The notes beneath the pieces are model-generated. The model was not told the origin of the DNA. It ran no database searches and saw nothing but the letters and a program-made list of their open reading frames with translations. Position numbers and translations under genes: made by a program. Below, piece after piece: positions 29,760 through 38,298 of a stretch of DNA of 64,000 nt. The DNA is taken from contig NZ_UIHB01000002.1 of NCBI RefSeq assembly GCF_900476395.1, positions 124,001-188,000 of the forward strand, given 5' to 3'. The stretch's first letter is position 1, and each line of letters starts with the position of its first letter. The DNA is from Xanthomonas euroxanthea. Its GTDB lineage: Bacteria > Pseudomonadota > Gammaproteobacteria > Xanthomonadales > Xanthomonadaceae.

Positions 29760-30156
29760 TGGTGGAGGTGGGCGGAATCGAACCGCCGTCCGGAAGCACT
29801 CCATCCCCAGCACTACATGCTTAGCCCTCCGTTAGATCTCATTCCCAGGCAGCACGGTTGGCAAAGCGCACCTGGAAACCAGCCTGCTTTATCTAACCGG
29901 TAGCTGACAGGCAGCCACTACCGATGGTTCCGTGATAATGACCCTACACCTACGAGCACGGGCACAAGTAGGTTCGGGGGTTCGCCTTAGGCGGCTGTAG
30001 AACTACAACTAAAGCCAATTAAGCGGCGATAGCGAAGTCCGAACCGTAGTTGTCATCGTTGGCAACTAAAAGTTTGCTGCTGGATTAACGAGGAAAGCTG
30101 CCCCCTCGGCATGCGCCAAGCGACTTCGCGACCCCCGTCGAAACCAGTGCACCCCC
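29760..30156 (-). ncRNA. ssrA: tmRNA (SsrA)
   Basis: About 397 nt. The 5' end GGGGGTG (30156 downward) pairs with CACCTCC just before the 3' CCA at 29760, forming the tRNA-like acceptor stem. A T-arm with GGTTCGATTCC lies next to it. The tag reading frame at 30063-30019 (minus) is ANDDNYGSDFAIAA followed by TAA; its AA end is the ClpXP/ClpAP degron. With SmpB it rescues ribosomes stalled on broken mRNAs and tags the product for proteolysis. The smpB gene is 2.7 kb away on the same strand. Confidence 0.97.
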
Positions 30157-30289: not shown

Positions 30290-32746
30290 ATGGCGACAGG
30301 CAAGCCCCCCCGTTCGCGGCAGGCACGTAGCGTCCCCCGCAAGCGCGCACCAGGTGTCGATGCAGCCAAGCCTCGGCGCGCAGCCACGGCCCCGCAGCAG
30401 GAGGCGCAGGACACCACGCTGACACGCGTGCAGGGCAAGGCGCGCACGGTGATCTACATCCATGGCATCGGCAACAAGCCGCCGGCCGAGGTGTTGCGCT
30501 GTCAGTGGGACAAGGCCTTGTTCGGGCGGCCGATGGGCGAGCGCACGCGCCTGGCGTATTGGGTCAATCGCGAGCGCTATCCGGTTGCCGAACCCGGCAA
30601 TTGCGATGCGCGCGATGTCGGCCCGGCGCTCAATCAGAGCGTGCAGCGCGCCTTGAGCACGCTCGGGCTGGTGCCAGGCGAGCAGGACCTGCATCTGCTC
30701 GCCGACGCCCTGGCGCAGAGCGAGCAGGAGCGCAGCGATCTGCATCGGTTGCTGGACGAGCTGGACGCCGCGCCCGCCATGCCGGCAGCCGGCGAGGTGC
30801 AGGCCAAAGGTCCGATCGATGCGATCAACCGGGTGTTGCTGCGGCTGATCTCGGCCGCGCTGCTGCAGGACGTGCACGATTTGTTCTTCGTGCCCGAGCG
30901 TGCAGCGTTGATGCGCGACAGCCTGGTGCAGCGCCTGCGCTCGGGGGGCGGGCCGTTCGTGGTGGTCGCGCACAGCCAGGGGTCGATGATCGCCTTCGAC
31001 GTGCTGCGTCAGCTCCAGGCTGCCGAGTGCGAGGTCAGCCTGTTCCTGACCCTGGGCTCGCCCCTTGGCCTGCCGCAGGTGCGCAGCATGTTCAAGCGCT
31101 GGACCGGCACGCGCAAGCTGCCGTTTCCTCTGTGCGTGCGGCGCTGGATCAACGTCGCCGATACGCGCGATCCGATCGCGCTGGATCCGGATCTCAGCGA
31201 CGACATCGCCAATGCGAAGGGACGGTTCGAAAACCTCTCAGGCGCGCGCTTGAACCCGGACTGGCAGCACAATGCGCATTCGGGTTCGGGCTACCTGTCG
31301 ATCCCGCAGGTGCGTGCGGCGGTGCGCGAGGCGGTGGGCGTCGGTTTCGATCAACCGGTGTCCAATGCCGTGCTGATCAAGGATCTCAGCGAGCAACTGG
31401 AAGCGCATGGCGCCGAGTACCGGCACGAGGTGCTCATCGAGCTGGATCGGCGGGTGTCGGGCGATGATCCGGCCGGCACGCGTGCGCTGCTGCTGGCGCA
31501 ACTGCGCCAGGCCGCTGCAGGCACCACCGGCTTGAGCGGCGAAGCGCTGGACGAGGCGATCGCGCTGGAAGATGGCCTGCAGCGGTTTGTGTCGGCACGG
31601 CTGACGCGGTTCGAGATCGAATCGCTGCAGGACCGCTACCGGGCATTGGGATTCCGGCGCATGTGGCGCGATGCCGGCAAGCGCGCGTTGATCAACGTGT
31701 CCGGCAACGTCCTGCATGCCGATGCGGCGCGCACTGCGTATCGCGCACGCGGCCAGCAGATCGGCTGGGCAGTGCTGGACACCGGTATCGCGGCCAGTCA
31801 TCCGCATTTCTTCGCAAAGGGCGAGCGCGACACGGTGGTGGCGCAATGGGATTGCACGCGCCGCGGCGCAGCCAAGCGACTGACACGCGCTGACGGCGAT
31901 GCCTTCGCCCGGCTGGATCGGCACGGGCACGGCACGCATATCGCCGGGATCATCGCCGGCCAGAGCCGCGCGGTGATTGCCGACGCGCAGGGCAACCCGG
32001 GCAAGCCGCTGGAGTTCGCCGGCATGGCGCCGGATACCCAGCTCTACGGTTTCAAGGTGCTGGACGATGCCGGCAACGGCCGCGATTCGTGGATGATCAA
32101 GGCGGTGCAGCAGGTGGCGGCAATCAACGAGCGTGCCGGCGAGCTGGTCATCCACGGCGTCAATCTGAGCCTTGGCGGTTACTTCGATCCGGAGAGCTAT
32201 GGCTGCGGTTTTACGCCGCTGTGCAACGAGCTGCGGCGGCTATGGCGGCAAGGCGTGCTGGTGGTGGTGGCCGCCGGCAACGAGGGCCTGGCGTGGTTGA
32301 TGGGCAACGACGGCGATGCATATCCGGCCAACATGGATCTGTCGATCAGCGACCCGGGCAATCTGGAAGACGCCATCGTGGTCGGCTCGGTGCACAAGAG
32401 CAGCCCGCACAATTACGGCGTGTCGTATTTTTCCTCGCGCGGGCCGACCGCCGATGGTCGCGGCAAGCCGGACGTCGTGGCGCCGGGCGAAAAGATCCTG
32501 TCGGCCTATTACGACTTCGACCCGAACGACCCGGCGAGCCTGATGGTGGAGATGAGCGGCACCAGCATGGCCGCACCGCACGTCTCCGGCGTGCTGGCCG
32601 GATTCCTCTCCGCACGCCGCGAGTTCATCGGCTTCCCGGACCGGGTCAAGCAACTGATGCTGGACACCTGCACCGACCTGCAGCGCGATCGCTATGTGCA
32701 GGGCAGGGGGGTGCCGAATTTGATGCGGATGCTTGGGGCGACGTGA
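30290..32746 (+). CDS. Alpha/beta-hydrolase fused to subtilisin-type (S8) serine protease
   Basis: 818 aa. AAGGAGAG precedes the ATG at 30290. The N-terminus (1-50) is strongly basic with no signal peptide, so a cytoplasmic location is inferred. Residues about 50-340 form an alpha/beta-hydrolase: IYIHGIGNKPP, nucleophile motif AHSQG with Ser229, Asp around DTRDPIALD and His in HNAHSGSGYL. A helical linker spans about 345-480. Residues about 485-815 are a subtilase with Asp497 (VLDTG), His547 (HGHGTH), oxyanion Asn664 (AAGNEG) and Ser759 (SGTSMAAPH), all intact. No pro-domain is recognisable. It sits on the opposite strand between ssrA and smpB. Substrates are unknown; it may cut or deacylate intracellular targets. 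Confidence 0.88.
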   Translation: MATGKPPRSRQARSVPRKRAPGVDAAKPRRAATAPQQEAQDTTLTRVQGKARTVIYIHGIGNKPPAEVLRCQWDKALFGRPMGERTRLAYWVNRERYPVAEPGNCDARDVGPALNQSVQRALSTLGLVPGEQDLHLLADALAQSEQERSDLHRLLDELDAAPAMPAAGEVQAKGPIDAINRVLLRLISAALLQDVHDLFFVPERAALMRDSLVQRLRSGGGPFVVVAHSQGSMIAFDVLRQLQAAECEVSLFLTLGSPLGLPQVRSMFKRWTGTRKLPFPLCVRRWINVADTRDPIALDPDLSDDIANAKGRFENLSGARLNPDWQHNAHSGSGYLSIPQVRAAVREAVGVGFDQPVSNAVLIKDLSEQLEAHGAEYRHEVLIELDRRVSGDDPAGTRALLLAQLRQAAAGTTGLSGEALDEAIALEDGLQRFVSARLTRFEIESLQDRYRALGFRRMWRDAGKRALINVSGNVLHADAARTAYRARGQQIGWAVLDTGIAASHPHFFAKGERDTVVAQWDCTRRGAAKRLTRADGDAFARLDRHGHGTHIAGIIAGQSRAVIADAQGNPGKPLEFAGMAPDTQLYGFKVLDDAGNGRDSWMIKAVQQVAAINERAGELVIHGVNLSLGGYFDPESYGCGFTPLCNELRRLWRQGVLVVVAAGNEGLAWLMGNDGDAYPANMDLSISDPGNLEDAIVVGSVHKSSPHNYGVSYFSSRGPTADGRGKPDVVAPGEKILSAYYDFDPNDPASLMVEMSGTSMAAPHVSGVLAGFLSARREFIGFPDRVKQLMLDTCTDLQRDRYVQGRGVPNLMRMLGAT

Positions 32747-32902
32747 GGAATCGGGAGTGGGGAATCGGGAATCGTAAAAGCGCGATGCTTCTCACGGATC
32801 CAGCAATGCCCGCGTCTTTAACTAACGTGAGGTCAACGCAGCTGAGATCAACGCAGTGAGCCTGCCCAGCTCTTGCGATTCTCCATTCCCGATTCCCCAC
32901 TC
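32747..32902. repeat. Inverted pair of GGGAATC-type heptad arrays (locus A)
   Basis: The left array 32747-32774 and right array 32876-32902 share 18 perfectly complementary bases (32755-32772 with 32885-32902), bracketing about 112 bp. The left arm begins directly after the protease stop, and the right arm reaches the smpB stop codon. The structure could serve as a bidirectional 3'-end hairpin for the two convergent genes. Confidence 0.75.
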
Positions 32903-33404
32903 ACGCGTCGCGGTTATGCCGCCGCATCACGCGCTGCTTGTCGCGCTGCCAGTCGCGGTCCTTGGCGGCGTCGCGCTTGTCGTGGTTCTGCTTGCCCTTG
33001 GCCAGTGCGATTTCCAGCTTGACCTTGTTGTTGCTCCAGTACAGCGCGGTGGGCACCAGGGTGTAGCCGTCGCGTTCGACGCTGCTCAACACCTTGTCGA
33101 TCTCCCGGCGGTGCAGCAGCAGCTTGCGGTCGCGGCGTTCCACCGGCACGGTGTGGCTGGAGGCCTGGATCAGCGGGGTGATCTGCGCGCCGATCAGGAA
33201 GATCTCGCCTGAACGCACGTAGGCGTAGCCGTCGATGATGTTGGCGCGACCGGCGCGGATCGCCTTGACTTCCCAGCCCTGCAGCGCCAAGCCGGCTTCG
33301 TAGCGCTCTTCCAGGTGGTATTCGTAGCGCGCACGCTTGTTCAGCGCGATGGTTTTCGTGGCCGTCGCGCCGTTTGCTTTATCCTTGGCTGGTTTCTTGC
33401 TCAT
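32901..33404 (-). CDS. smpB: SsrA-binding protein SmpB
   Basis: 167 aa, typical length. SmpB binds the tRNA-like domain of tmRNA and places it in the ribosomal A site. Family blocks are present: RARYEYHLEERYEAGLALQGWEVKAIR, NIIDGYAYVRSGEIFLIG, and the basic tail RDWQRDKQRVMRRHNRDA needed for decoding-centre contact. It is divergent from ratA (61 bp between starts), an arrangement widespread in gammaproteobacteria. Its partner ssrA is in the same window. Confidence 0.97.
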   Translation of the reverse strand: MSKKPAKDKANGATATKTIALNKRARYEYHLEERYEAGLALQGWEVKAIRAGRANIIDGYAYVRSGEIFLIGAQITPLIQASSHTVPVERRDRKLLLHRREIDKVLSSVERDGYTLVPTALYWSNNKVKLEIALAKGKQNHDKRDAAKDRDWQRDKQRVMRRHNRDA

Positions 33405-35464: not shown

Positions 35465-37129
35465 TCAGGCGCTCTGCAGCAGCTTGCGTGCCGCCGCGCG
35501 GGCTTCCTTGCTGACTTCTACCCCGCCCAGCATGCGCGCCAGTTCTTCCTGGCGGGCCTGCGGGCCGAGCAGTTCGACCGCGCTCTGGGTCATGCCGTCC
35601 ACCGGCGCCTTGCTGACCCGATAGTGCGCATGGCCCTTGGCGGCCACCTGCGGCAAGTGGGTCACGCACAGCACCTGGCGCTCTTCGCCCAGGGCGCGCA
35701 GCTTCTGCCCGACGATGTCCGCCACCGCGCCGCCGATGCCGGAATCGACCTCGTCGAAGACCATGGTCGGCACGCTGTCCAGACCGAGGGCGGCGACCTC
35801 GATGGCCAGTGAAATCCGCGACAGCTCGCCGCCGGAGGCGACCTTGCGCAATGCGCGGGGTGGCTGCCCGGCATTGGCGGCGACCAGGAATTCCACCCGC
35901 TCGGCGCCATTGGGATCCGGGCGCAGGGTGTCCTGCGGCTGCAGCTGGATCAGGAACTGCCCGCCGCCCATGCCCAGCTCGCCGATCAGCGTGGTGGTGG
36001 CGGCCGACAGGGCCTCGGCAGCGGCCGTGCGGCTGGCGCTGAGGGTGCTGGCTGCACTGCGCCAGACGCCGATTGCCGCCTCGATGTGCTTTTCCAGCTG
36101 CTGCAGGCGCTCGTCGGCGCCGCGCAGGCTTTCCACTTCCAGGCTCATGCGCTCGCGCTGGGCGGCCAGCTCGTCCGGGGTGACGCGATGCTTGCGCGCC
36201 AGATCGTGCAGGCGGCCGAGCCGGCGCTCCATCGCCTCGAACTGGGCCGGGTCGGCCTCCAGGTCGTCGCGCACGCGGTCGAGCAGGGCCAGCGCCTCTT
36301 CGATCTGGATGACCGCGCTGTCCAGCAGCGCATCGACCTCGCCCAGGCGTGGCTCGTGCTCGGCCACGCGCGCCAGGTCGTGGCGGCTGTCCTGCAGCAG
36401 GCCCAGCGCGCAGGCGCCGTCGTCGCCATTGAGCTGCAGGGCCACGCTGTCGCAGGCGCCGATCAAGGCGGTGGCATGCGCCTGGCGGCGGTGATTGACG
36501 TCCAGCGCGGCGATCGCGGCCGGGTCCAGGTCCTCGCGTTCCAGTTCGCCGAGCTGGTGTTCCAGGAAACCGATGCGGTCGGAGACATCGCCTTGCGCGG
36601 ACAGCGCGTCGCGCTCGTCCAGCAGGGCCTGCCAGCGCTGGCTGGCCTGGCGCACCTGCTCGCGCTGCGCGCCGTTGCGGGCATAGGCGTCGAGCAGGGC
36701 GAGCTGGCTGTGGCGGGCCATCAGGGCCTGGTGTTCGTGCTGGCCATGGATCTCCACCAGCCGCGAAGCCAGTTCCGCCAGTTGCGAGGAGGTCACCGGG
36801 CGGCCGTTGATCCAGGCACGCGAGCCGCCATCGGCACGGATGACCCGGCGCAGCTGGCATTGCGCATCGTCGTCGAGTTCGTTGTCCGACAGCCAGGTCA
36901 GGCCGGGGTGCTGGGGCGGCAGCTGGAATTCGGCCGACAGTTCGGCGCGGTCGGCGCCGTGGCGGACCACGCCGCTGTCGGCGCGCAGCCCGGACAGAAA
37001 GCCCAGGGCGTCCACCATCAGCGACTTGCCGGCGCCGGTTTCGCCGGAAACCACGGTCATGCCTGGCCCGAATTCCAGTTCGGTGGCGCGGACGACGGCG
37101 AAATCCTTGATGGAGAGGTGTCTGAGCAT
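35465..37129 (-). CDS. recN: DNA repair protein RecN
   Basis: 554 aa, normal for this SMC-like ATPase of double-strand-break repair. The start at 37129 gives the family N-terminus MLRHLSIKDFAVV. Walker A is SGETGAGKS (about residues 29-37). A long coiled-coil region spans about 160-365, the signature is ASGGELSRISLAIE, and Walker B/D-loop is MVFDEVDSGIGG. It is divergent from hrcA (116 bp). I looked for, and did not see, a LexA palindrome in the gap. Confidence 0.95.
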   Translation of the reverse strand: MLRHLSIKDFAVVRATELEFGPGMTVVSGETGAGKSLMVDALGFLSGLRADSGVVRHGADRAELSAEFQLPPQHPGLTWLSDNELDDDAQCQLRRVIRADGGSRAWINGRPVTSSQLAELASRLVEIHGQHEHQALMARHSQLALLDAYARNGAQREQVRQASQRWQALLDERDALSAQGDVSDRIGFLEHQLGELEREDLDPAAIAALDVNHRRQAHATALIGACDSVALQLNGDDGACALGLLQDSRHDLARVAEHEPRLGEVDALLDSAVIQIEEALALLDRVRDDLEADPAQFEAMERRLGRLHDLARKHRVTPDELAAQRERMSLEVESLRGADERLQQLEKHIEAAIGVWRSAASTLSASRTAAAEALSAATTTLIGELGMGGGQFLIQLQPQDTLRPDPNGAERVEFLVAANAGQPPRALRKVASGGELSRISLAIEVAALGLDSVPTMVFDEVDSGIGGAVADIVGQKLRALGEERQVLCVTHLPQVAAKGHAHYRVSKAPVDGMTQSAVELLGPQARQEELARMLGGVEVSKEARAAARKLLQSA

Positions 37130-37245
37130 GGGGTCGAGTGTGAACGCTTTGGGGAAGCTTAGGGTGGGAGCGGCGGGCAGGGAATAAGACGCTTGCCAAC
37201 CGCAGGGCCAGACATTATCTATGCCCAGTCTCACCGGATGATCCC

Positions 37246-38298
37246 ATGCGCGCGTCACAGTCCCCAACGCTCGACCCCCGCGCTCGCCAGCTGCTGCGGA
37301 CGCTGATTGCCCGCTATATCCGCGACGGCGAGCCGGTGGGCTCCAAGACGCTGGCCCAGCACGCAGGGCTGGACGTCAGCCCGGCCACCATCCGCAACAT
37401 CCTGGCCGACCTGGAGGATGTGGGGCTGCTCAGCTCTCCGCACACATCGGCCGGGCGGGTGCCCACCGCGCACGGGTACCGGGTGTTCGTCGACAGCCTG
37501 GTGCAGATGCAGCCGCCCGGCGAGGAAGAAGTGCGACGCCTGCGCGCGGAGCTTGCCAGCGGCAACGGCACCCAGTCGCTGCTGGGCAGTGCCTCGCAGA
37601 TGCTGTCGGCGATGAGCCATTTCGTCGGCGTGGTCAGCGCGCCGCGGCGCGAGCAGTTCGCGTTCCGGCACATCGACTTCGTGGCGCTGGACGCGCGGCG
37701 GGTGCTGGCGATCCTGGTGTTTGCCGACAACGAGGTGCAGAACCGGGTGATCGAGCCGCGCCGGGCCTACGAGCCGGCCGAGCTGGAGCGGGTGGCCAAT
37801 TACCTCAATGCGCAATTTGCCGGGCGCGCGCTGGCGGACATCCGCGCCAGCCTGTTGCGCGAGTTGCGCCTGGCCAAGAACGAGATGGAGCAGTTGCTGG
37901 CGCACAGCGTGGACCTGGCCAGCGAGGCGCTGGTACCGGCCGATGCCGACGACATGGTGATGGCCGGGCAGACCCGCCTGATGGGCGTGCAGGACCTGTC
38001 GGACCTGGACCGGCTGCGCGAGCTGTTCGAGGCCTTCGCCAGCAAGCGCGAGATCCTGCAGCTGCTCGAACGCACCATCCAGGCGCCGGGCGTGCGCATC
38101 TTCATCGGCGAGGAGACCGGCATGGTGTCGCTGGACGACGTCTCGCTGGTCACCGCGCCGTACGCCGCCAATGGCCAGGTGCTGGGCGTGCTGGGCGTGA
38201 TCGGGCCCAAACGCATGGCCTACGACCGGGTGATTCCGCTGGTGCAGACCGCCGCCCAGGTGCTGGGCGCGGCGATGGAGCCGCCCGGCACGCGATAA
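37246..38298 (+). CDS. hrcA: Heat-inducible transcription repressor HrcA
   Basis: 350 aa. The winged-helix N-terminus (ARQLLRTLIARYIRDGEPVGSKTLAQHAGLDVSPATIRNILADLEDVGLL) is diagnostic. The C-terminal part holds GAF-like and dimerisation segments (VRIFIGEETGM and VLGVIGPKRMAYDRVIPLV). HrcA represses chaperone genes through CIRCE elements and needs GroEL for activity. No CIRCE inverted repeat is visible upstream of hrcA, grpE or dnaK here, so its target probably lies elsewhere, for example at groESL. Confidence 0.96.
   Translation: MRASQSPTLDPRARQLLRTLIARYIRDGEPVGSKTLAQHAGLDVSPATIRNILADLEDVGLLSSPHTSAGRVPTAHGYRVFVDSLVQMQPPGEEEVRRLRAELASGNGTQSLLGSASQMLSAMSHFVGVVSAPRREQFAFRHIDFVALDARRVLAILVFADNEVQNRVIEPRRAYEPAELERVANYLNAQFAGRALADIRASLLRELRLAKNEMEQLLAHSVDLASEALVPADADDMVMAGQTRLMGVQDLSDLDRLRELFEAFASKREILQLLERTIQAPGVRIFIGEETGMVSLDDVSLVTAPYAANGQVLGVLGVIGPKRMAYDRVIPLVQTAAQVLGAAMEPPGTR

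What the first reader, a model, noticed from the sequence alone, without database searches (positions are those of the whole stretch)
30290..32746. Two complete serine-hydrolase domains in one apparently intracellular protein
An alpha/beta-hydrolase with its Ser229 motif (AHSQG) and a subtilase with all catalytic residues (Asp497, His547, Asn664, Ser759) are joined by a helical linker. There is no signal peptide and no recognisable pro-domain, so something other than secretion must control the protease. The hydrolase domain may be a sensor, a lid, or a second activity on the same target. Placement on the opposite strand between ssrA and smpB suggests insertion into the trans-translation locus. 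A protein-quality-control or anti-phage role are both open guesses.
Basis: partly seen in the sequence, partly recalled or inferred. Interest (0 to 1): 0.75.

Follow-up and report, generated by a model that had tools for sequence, protein, structure and literature searches.

The report
Fused lipase-like and subtilisin-like enzyme
Xanthomonas bacteria carry, beside their ribosome-rescue genes, one protein that joins a lipase-like enzyme to a protein-cutting enzyme; its relatives elsewhere are mostly two-gene pairs, some of them near antiviral-type genes, so it may be a self-contained emergency switch in which the cutter controls the other enzyme.

Summary
In detail: an 818-aa frame at 30290-32746 joins an N-terminal alpha/beta-hydrolase (S229, D294/D299, H330) to a C-terminal S8 subtilase (D497, H547, N664, S759), without a visible signal peptide. 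It lies between ssrA and smpB. 35 of 35 genomes of the genus carry it (broken in 5); both domains are under purifying selection. Five divergent full-length fusions sit elsewhere. The fused hydrolase has relatives that stand alone (11 of 11 read). The subtilase belongs to a clade whose unfused members are followed by a second hydrolase gene in 18 of 20 loci read: an alpha/beta-hydrolase (10) or an MBL-fold protein (8; the three scanned resemble LmuA/Avs1a), with patatin or Tle1-like lipases near five of the latter. Best reading: a single-chain protease-hydrolase pair working like the trypsin- or caspase-activated nuclease pairs of antiviral immunity (Tuck et al. 2025), subtilase as trigger, lipase-like domain as latent effector. 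Pairing is shown; activation, substrate and phage defence are inferred. Core vertical inheritance, no linked sensor and no PADLOC hit for several partners and neighbours count against a classical defence system. New variant of a known kind.

The parts
30290..32746 (+). Fused alpha/beta-hydrolase-subtilase gene, 818 aa
   Evidence: ORF; 35 of 35 genomes of the genus carry it, 5 broken; purifying selection in both domains
30290..30433 (+). Poorly conserved basic N-terminal tail, residues 1-48; no signal peptide seen
   Evidence: (dN/dS 0.15-0.92 in 11 Xanthomonas comparisons)
30437..31339 (+). Alpha/beta-hydrolase domain, about residues 50-350: H58-G59, S229, D294/D299, H330
30590..30814 (+). 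Least conserved stretch of the hydrolase (about residues 101-175), between an early strand and the nucleophile elbow; possible cap or gate (inference)
31565..31714 (+). Conserved pre-catalytic block, residues 426-475; possible pro-domain (inference)
   Evidence: no Pfam inhibitor hit
31745..32743 (+). Subtilase (S8) catalytic domain, residues 486-818: D497, H547, N664, S759
29760..30156 (-). ssrA (tmRNA), flanking landmark, not part of the system as far as shown
32901..33404 (-). smpB, flanking landmark

Best explanation
The protein is the single-chain form of a protease-hydrolase pair. Shown by sequence: the subtilase belongs to a distinct clade whose unfused members are nearly always followed at once by a second hydrolase gene, and here a (different) lipase-like alpha/beta-hydrolase is fused in front of it. 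Inferred: the alpha/beta-hydrolase is a latent effector that attacks membrane lipids or another ester once released, and the subtilase is its dedicated switch. The subtilase is itself held back by its pre-catalytic segment and/or by its assembly state. An intracellular danger signal (phage infection or another stress) triggers it; it cuts its own chain, in the hydrolase cap or in the linker, and unleashes the hydrolase to stop growth or kill the infected cell.
For: (1) Pairing: 18 of 20 unfused-clade loci read have a second hydrolase gene directly downstream, alpha/beta-hydrolase in 10 and MBL-fold in 8; the gap is 7-38 nt in the 17 measured. 0 of 7 readable subtilase loci outside the clade have one. 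(2) The MBL partners scanned (3 of 8) match PADLOC LmuA at 1e-46 to 1e-52 and Avs1a at 1e-28 to 1e-37, the kind of nuclease that a protease activates (PMC12799240: abstract, Results, Discussion, legends). (3) Lipase-type genes recur near MBL loci: patatin in L115 and L117 (Pfam), L071 (annotation, one gene away), L114 (fragment); Tle1-like in L067. (4) Partner type follows the subtilase trees: 2 changes for three partner types (unpaired rows not counted), 3 for four groups with the outgroup, each the least possible; near copies help this. (5) Both catalytic sets conserved and under purifying selection. (6) SIR2, TIR, FRG or CBASS-like genes near 5 of 25 loci. (7) Precedents: caspase-alpha/beta-hydrolase pairing and rare S8 domains beside trypsin and NucA nuclease domains in conflict systems (PMC7159879, passages); alpha/beta-hydrolases read as membrane-lipid effectors (PMC8195603, passages); subtilisin-like HET-Q2 likely cutting gasdermin HET-Q1 (PMC12881547, passages).
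Against: In Xanthomonas the gene is core and vertically inherited at one site, unlike mobile, patchy defence systems. No sensor gene is recognised there. PADLOC has no match for the type-B partner of L066 or the Tle1-like protein of L067, nor for any of 8 proteins scanned from the divergent-fusion and broken loci, the SIR2-like one included. The neighbour count has no background rate, most neighbours were not scanned, and a control locus outside the clade (L204) also has a CHAT-domain gene upstream. The fused and type-B hydrolases are not shown to be homologous (phmmer none; hhalign probability 22.9, E 0.0009). The fused hydrolase's relatives stand alone without a subtilase (11 of 11 loci read), so it need not be a zymogen. 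Five of 35 genus copies are broken and one relative keeps only the hydrolase (L077), so the gene is dispensable. No usable model shows a gate or pro-domain. With an outgroup the fused clade branches before both unfused groups, so descent from the alpha/beta-hydrolase-paired branch is not shown.
Confidence: 0.42

Rival explanations
1. Housekeeping intracellular protease: the subtilase is the working enzyme (turnover of particular proteins under stress) and the hydrolase domain is a regulatory or targeting module, perhaps sensing lipid or acyl molecules. The core, vertical distribution reflects physiology, not immunity.
For: 35 of 35 genomes of the genus carry it at a fixed site with low dN/dS; no recognised sensor or mobile gene beside it; intracellular subtilisins are among its PDB matches.
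Against: The hydrolase keeps a complete catalytic set in all 12 aligned fusions, so it is more than a scaffold. Relatives elsewhere are on plasmids with pro-effector-type partners. The gene is broken in 5 of 35 genomes.
Confidence: 0.27
2. Reverse order: the protease is the effector (broad degradation of cell or phage proteins) and the alpha/beta-hydrolase is the trigger, for example by binding or turning over a lipid or nucleotide-linked signal.
For: Domain order hydrolase-first places it like a sensor; partner hydrolases are interchangeable (alpha/beta type B, MBL) on a conserved subtilase.
Against: In the tested trypsin- and caspase-nuclease pairs the protease is the trigger (PMC12799240); the MBL partners scanned here belong to that effector kind.
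Confidence: 0.13
3. A non-classically exported enzyme acting on the plant host or on competing bacteria.
For: The genus is plant-associated (general knowledge); the N-terminal 48 residues are basic and variable.
Against: No signal peptide seen; divergent members start directly with the hydrolase strand and lack the tail; the same gene sits in Pseudoxanthomonas.
Confidence: 0.06
4. Protein quality control linked to trans-translation.
For: Fixed position between ssrA and smpB.
Against: Five divergent fusions are elsewhere (L072-L076) and 5 of 16 non-carriers have smpB and ssrA 83-260 nt apart; nothing but position links them.
Confidence: 0.05

Closest known systems
Gated nuclease-protease pairs (HamM/HamA, Avs1a/Avs1b, CanC/CanA; Tuck et al. 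2025, PMC12799240)
   Same: Protease encoded with a second hydrolase; 8 unfused loci of the clade have MBL partners, and the 3 scanned match LmuA/Avs1a profiles.
   Different: Protease is a subtilase, not trypsin-like or caspase; in the window the partner is a fused alpha/beta-hydrolase; no sensor gene recognised beside it. [quoted passage not shown] neither 'subtilase' nor 'subtilisin' occurs in its main text; its supplement was not seen, so the MBL-subtilase pairs may be in it.
Caspase-alpha/beta-hydrolase pairs of VMAP/MoxR-vWA conflict systems, and S8 domains beside trypsin and NucA domains (Kaur et al. 2020, PMC7159879, passages seen)
   Same: Peptidase always next to an alpha/beta-hydrolase gene, predicted to operate together; an S8 domain in one chain with a nuclease effector.
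   Different: Caspase rather than subtilase in the alpha/beta-hydrolase pairs, separate genes, embedded in NTP-dependent systems; the S8 case is with a nuclease, not an alpha/beta-hydrolase.
HET-Q2/HET-Q1 of Podospora (PMC12881547, passages seen)
   Same: A subtilisin-like protease likely releases a membrane-attacking cell-death protein by cleavage.
   Different: Fungal; the target is a gasdermin, not an enzyme; not fused.
IetAS (IteS/IetS) subtilase of anti-phage defence
   Same: S8 fold; weak profile match.
   Different: 33.1 bits against a cut-off of 900.

Membership tests
S8 subtilase | Asp, His, Ser triad and oxyanion Asn in the S8 domain | tested here: met
   Pfam 1.7e-45; D497, H547, N664, S759 invariant in A2 (16 rows) and A3 (20 rows)
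S8 subtilase, secreted type | Signal peptide | tested here: not met
   hydropathy only, 13 proteins (7 fused, 6 unfused); no fused one has a hydrophobic N-terminus; two unfused ones (L113, L068) have moderately hydrophobic stretches
S8 subtilase, secreted type | I9-type pro-domain | tested here: inconclusive
   no Pfam or PDB sequence match; conserved block 426-475; model unusable there
Alpha/beta-hydrolase superfamily | Oxyanion glycine, nucleophile elbow with Ser, then acid and His in order | tested here: met
   G59, H228-S229-x-G231, D294/D299, H330 in 12 of 12 fused and 11 of 11 stand-alone relatives; H58 is invariant in the 16 fused rows but not among the stand-alone ones
Alpha/beta-hydrolase superfamily | Three-dimensional fold | tested here: inconclusive
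   model poor overall; fold search switched off
Gated nuclease-protease pair | MBL-fold nuclease encoded with the protease | tested here: not met
   none among the neighbours scanned; present in 8 of 20 unfused relatives
Gated nuclease-protease pair | Protease cuts and activates the partner | not testable with these tools
   needs biochemistry
AVAST type 1 / Lamassu / Hachiman | STAND NTPase, SMC-like LmuB or HamB helicase in the operon | tested here: not met
   Pfam of 9 neighbours: GGDEF (2), SmpB, Polyketide_cyc, Ub-RnfH, BamE, FUR, SMC_N, one without a match. The SMC_N protein (35465-37267) I take for the core gene recN (recalled). The window's neighbours were not scanned with PADLOC
IetAS | IteS profile score above cut-off | tested here: not met
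   33.1 bits against 900
Subtilase-hydrolase pair clade defined here | Subtilase clade membership plus adjacent or fused hydrolase | tested here: met
   trees, loci

The most novel reading that the evidence does not exclude
A new class of proteolytically switched immune effector: subtilases paired, and in xanthomonads fused in one chain, with lipase-like alpha/beta-hydrolases or MBL nucleases, so that one polypeptide carries protease switch, zymogen and effector. Xanthomonas would keep it as a core, sensor-free abortive-infection or stress-death protein at the ssrA-smpB site.
Probability: 0.28. Interest if true: 0.85.

Novelty: new variant of a known kind. Interest (0 to 1): 0.6.

Why it matters
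If right, subtilases join trypsin-like proteases and caspases as switches of latent hydrolases in bacteria, and the partner can be a lipase-like enzyme as well as a nuclease. The fusion is a natural one-to-one version that can be tested with two point mutants of one gene in a laboratory strain. It also suggests looking for immune-like death proteins among core genes outside defence islands.

Tried and rejected
Structure: one AlphaFold job on 21 close sequences gave mean pLDDT 40.9 and is not used as evidence for folds.

Pro-domain: residues 351-500 against the PDB and ten pre-catalytic segments against Pfam gave no subtilisin inhibitor domain; I keep it as a guess only.

Homology of the fused hydrolase with the type-B partner hydrolase: not shown (phmmer; hhalign probability 22.9, E 0.0009).

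Membership in AVAST, Lamassu or IetAS: rejected for the window gene (see membership test). PADLOC's 'subtilase' model PDLC03014 matches at 236.8 bits, but the tool does not say to which system that model belongs, so I draw no system name from it.

Prophage cargo: considered because ssrA is a common attachment site (recalled). The gene lies on the 5' side of ssrA and is shared by the whole genus sample. Of 23 phage records with a match none covers 80% of the query, and the 20 listed match only within residues 438-815. Two IMG/VR contigs (L127, L128) end at this gene, most simply host flank of proviruses; not followed up.

First tree reading (fused clade nested among alpha/beta-hydrolase-paired subtilases) was weakened by the rooted tree: the groups stay separate, their branching order is unresolved. 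Four rows (L116, L119, L120, L125) were left out of the second tree as long, partial or unpaired; L120 was only the second piece of a gene split in two frames.

Unread rows and dependence: of 23 plasmid records with the unfused clade I read 13; the other ten are Rhizobium records that I took for near copies from the listing. The 20 loci are not independent: L124-L126 lie on one plasmid, L119 and L120 on another, and several Rhizobium loci are close kin. The controls were 8 plasmid hits chosen by me from the 40 listed, mostly much larger subtilases. In L208 the gene runs off the stretch, so 7 are readable, in L205 and L210 for only 199 and 229 nt; that collection's gene table is incomplete.

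Literature: ten searches listed no paper whose title or shown abstract concerns a subtilase-alpha/beta-hydrolase pair or fusion. Two lists were cut (20 of 136, 20 of 55); the library lacks most subscription journals, and supplements were not available.
Full report
1. The observation. The open frame at 30290-32746 is as described: 818 codons on the + strand between the tmRNA gene (29760-30156, -) and smpB (32901-33404, -; Pfam SmpB 2.5e-56). The C-terminal part is a subtilase (Peptidase_S8 494-800, E 1.7e-45; best PDB matches 9ues and 3afg at 1.6e-23 and 3e-23). The N-terminal part reaches no Pfam cut-off, but by motif it is an alpha/beta-hydrolase. In 16 aligned fused proteins (the window's and 15 relatives) H58-G59-I60, H228-S229-x-G231, T254-x-GSPLG, D294, D299 and H330 are invariant. 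A profile of the domain finds relatives in 15 other genomes of a class sample (16 of 274 with the own genome, E <= 1e-8). The 11 of these loci that I read encode stand-alone proteins of 282-343 aa that share G59, H228-S229-x-G231, GSPLG, D294, D299 and H330 in 11 of 11.

2. Cellular place. By hydropathy none of the seven fused proteins checked has a hydrophobic N-terminus, and two divergent fusions (L074, L076) begin directly with the first hydrolase strand; no dedicated signal-peptide predictor was run, and two of six unfused proteins have moderately hydrophobic N-terminal stretches (L068, L113). The first 48 residues are a basic, poorly conserved tail: dN/dS 0.15-0.92 in 11 comparisons within Xanthomonas, against 0.05-0.17 for the hydrolase and 0.05-0.09 for the subtilase; three more distant comparisons gave 0.26-0.39 and 0.19-0.31 for the two domains. 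The protein is most likely cytoplasmic, and both domains are maintained.

3. Distribution and address. 75 of 395 genomes of the family match at E <= 1e-30, in 9 of 54 genera. All 35 genomes of the genus do; in 5 the gene is broken by a stop, frameshifts or an insertion. Of 33 named loci (Xanthomonas, Pseudoxanthomonas), tmRNA was found beside the gene in 32; smpB lay on the other side in 7 of the 8 of these that I printed. Of 20 unnamed loci taken from the family, tmRNA was found in 13 and smpB in 14; both are missing from L072-L076, the most divergent fusions, which are full length and 41-50% identical. In 16 non-carriers tmRNA was found within 1.5 kb of smpB in 7, with a gap of 83-260 nt in 5. 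The simplest history is one insertion between smpB and ssrA in an ancestor of Xanthomonas and Pseudoxanthomonas, then vertical descent with repeated loss. Outside the family, samples of 369 class and 398 phylum genomes gave four other carriers of the subtilase clade at E <= 1e-60, none of them fused.

4. The unfused relatives. Plasmid searches with the window protein and two clade members led to 23 plasmid records of the clade. I read 13 of them plus the four chromosomal cases, 20 loci in all. In 18 of 20 a second hydrolase gene follows the subtilase (gap 7-38 nt in the 17 measured, start codons as annotated or chosen). In 10 it is an alpha/beta-hydrolase of another family (type B; HGW, GHSFG and a late His invariant). 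In 8 it is an MBL-fold protein. The three MBL proteins scanned match PADLOC LmuA (1e-46 to 1e-52), Avs1a and RTasMBL and NCBIfam Avs1a below its cut-off (140-152 bits against 420). A patatin-like phospholipase lies near four MBL loci (L071 by annotation, one gene away; L115 and L117 by Pfam; L114 as a fragment) and a Tle1-like lipase near one (L067). Two loci have no such partner: L116, with an M48 peptidase gene upstream, and L119, a doubtful, long-branched member. The loci are not independent (three lie on one plasmid, two on another). As a control, 0 of 7 readable plasmid subtilase loci outside the clade have such a partner; these are mostly much larger proteins, so the control is not closely matched. 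The type-B partner of L066 and the Tle1-like protein match no PADLOC model.

5. Phylogeny. In a tree of 35 subtilase domains the fused proteins are one group (100/100), and fused plus alpha/beta-hydrolase-paired rows are split from MBL-paired and unpaired rows (98/97). With five distant phage subtilases as outgroup and four awkward rows removed, fused, type-B-paired and MBL-paired rows are each one group (92/89, 75/66, 100/100), but the fused group branches first. So partner type follows descent, as expected if protease and partner function together; near copies contribute to this, and which arrangement is ancestral is open.

6. Neighbourhood. Genes of kinds met in antiviral systems lie near 5 of 25 loci (the 20 and L072-L076): cyclase, E2 and TIR genes (L068, annotation), SIR2 (L118, L120; L076 directly downstream, just under the Pfam cut-off), TIR (L125) and FRG (L118 by annotation; L120 by Pfam). 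L073 has a TrbL/VirB6 conjugation gene nearby. Against this: most neighbours were not scanned, there is no background rate, PADLOC matched none of 8 proteins scanned from the divergent-fusion and broken loci, and one control locus also has a CHAT-domain gene upstream. The window locus has no such neighbour among 9 proteins scanned. One stand-alone relative of the fused hydrolase overlaps a gene with a TPR-S sensor domain (L194).

7. How it probably works. Tuck et al. (PMC12799240; abstract, Results, Discussion and legends read) show that trypsin-like and caspase proteases activate a latent MBL nuclease, with cuts in loops that gate its active site, in otherwise unrelated antiviral systems, and state that nuclease homologues also pair with other protease families. 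Kaur et al. [quoted passage not shown] Alpha/beta-hydrolases in such systems are read as membrane-lipid hydrolases (PMC8195603, passages). A subtilisin-like protease, HET-Q2, is the likely cutter of the fungal gasdermin HET-Q1 (PMC12881547, passages). Set against these, the subtilase clade described here looks like a further protease used in the same way, with an MBL or lipase-like partner, and the Xanthomonas protein like its one-chain form. Shown: catalytic residues, pairing, fusion, selection. Inferred: that the subtilase activates the hydrolase, that the hydrolase harms membranes, that phage or stress is the trigger. The least conserved part of the hydrolase (about 101-175) lies between an early strand and the nucleophile elbow and would be a natural gate or cap; this is untested.

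8. What speaks against it. The gene is core and immobile in its genus, no sensor is recognised beside it, relatives of the fused hydrolase stand alone in all 11 loci read, type-B and fused hydrolases are not demonstrably related, defence-type neighbours are few and uncontrolled, and no usable structural model was obtained. A housekeeping protease with a lipid-responsive regulatory domain remains the main rival.

9. Verdict. Observation confirmed; interpretation partly supported; new variant of a known kind (protease-hydrolase pairs), interesting because it is testable in a laboratory strain with two point mutants. Ten literature searches listed no paper on this pair or fusion by title or shown abstract; two lists were cut, the library is incomplete and supplements were not seen.

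Noticed in passing
L087 6829-12975 (same genome as L062): The gene is interrupted by a roughly 6-kb insertion with two ORFs that look like IS21-type istA/istB and one ORF whose start resembles a type III effector of the genus; these labels are recalled, not tested.
   Followed up: partly
L076 4209-5276 and 7937-10498: The divergent fusion is followed 3 nt downstream by a SIR2-like gene (Pfam 1.9e-4, just under cut-off) and preceded by an 853-aa ORF without Pfam or PADLOC match.
   Followed up: partly
L194 3-2367: A stand-alone relative of the fused hydrolase overlaps a downstream gene with a TPR-S (sensor) domain, a possible separate two-gene system.
   Followed up: no
L127 and L128 (IMG/VR contigs): Two predicted viral contigs carry 99% and 95% identical copies and end exactly at this gene, suggesting proviruses near ssrA with host flank included.
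   Followed up: no
window 29760-30156 and loci: tmRNA tags are long and variable in most Xanthomonas-named loci (ANDDNYGSD[F/Y/H/S/L]AIAA) and ANDDNYGSDFALAA in some other loci of the family, but ANDDNYALAA in others that have the same neighbouring gene.
   Followed up: no
L118 2488-11390; L120 2790-8206: Two Rhizobium plasmids share an FRG - subtilase - MBL order followed by a SIR2 gene (in L118 after a DUF3616 gene); L118 has a second MBL-like gene upstream. Possible larger defence cassette.
   Followed up: partly
L077 5115-6215: One relative keeps the hydrolase part (366 aa) next to smpB but has lost the subtilase part.
   Followed up: no
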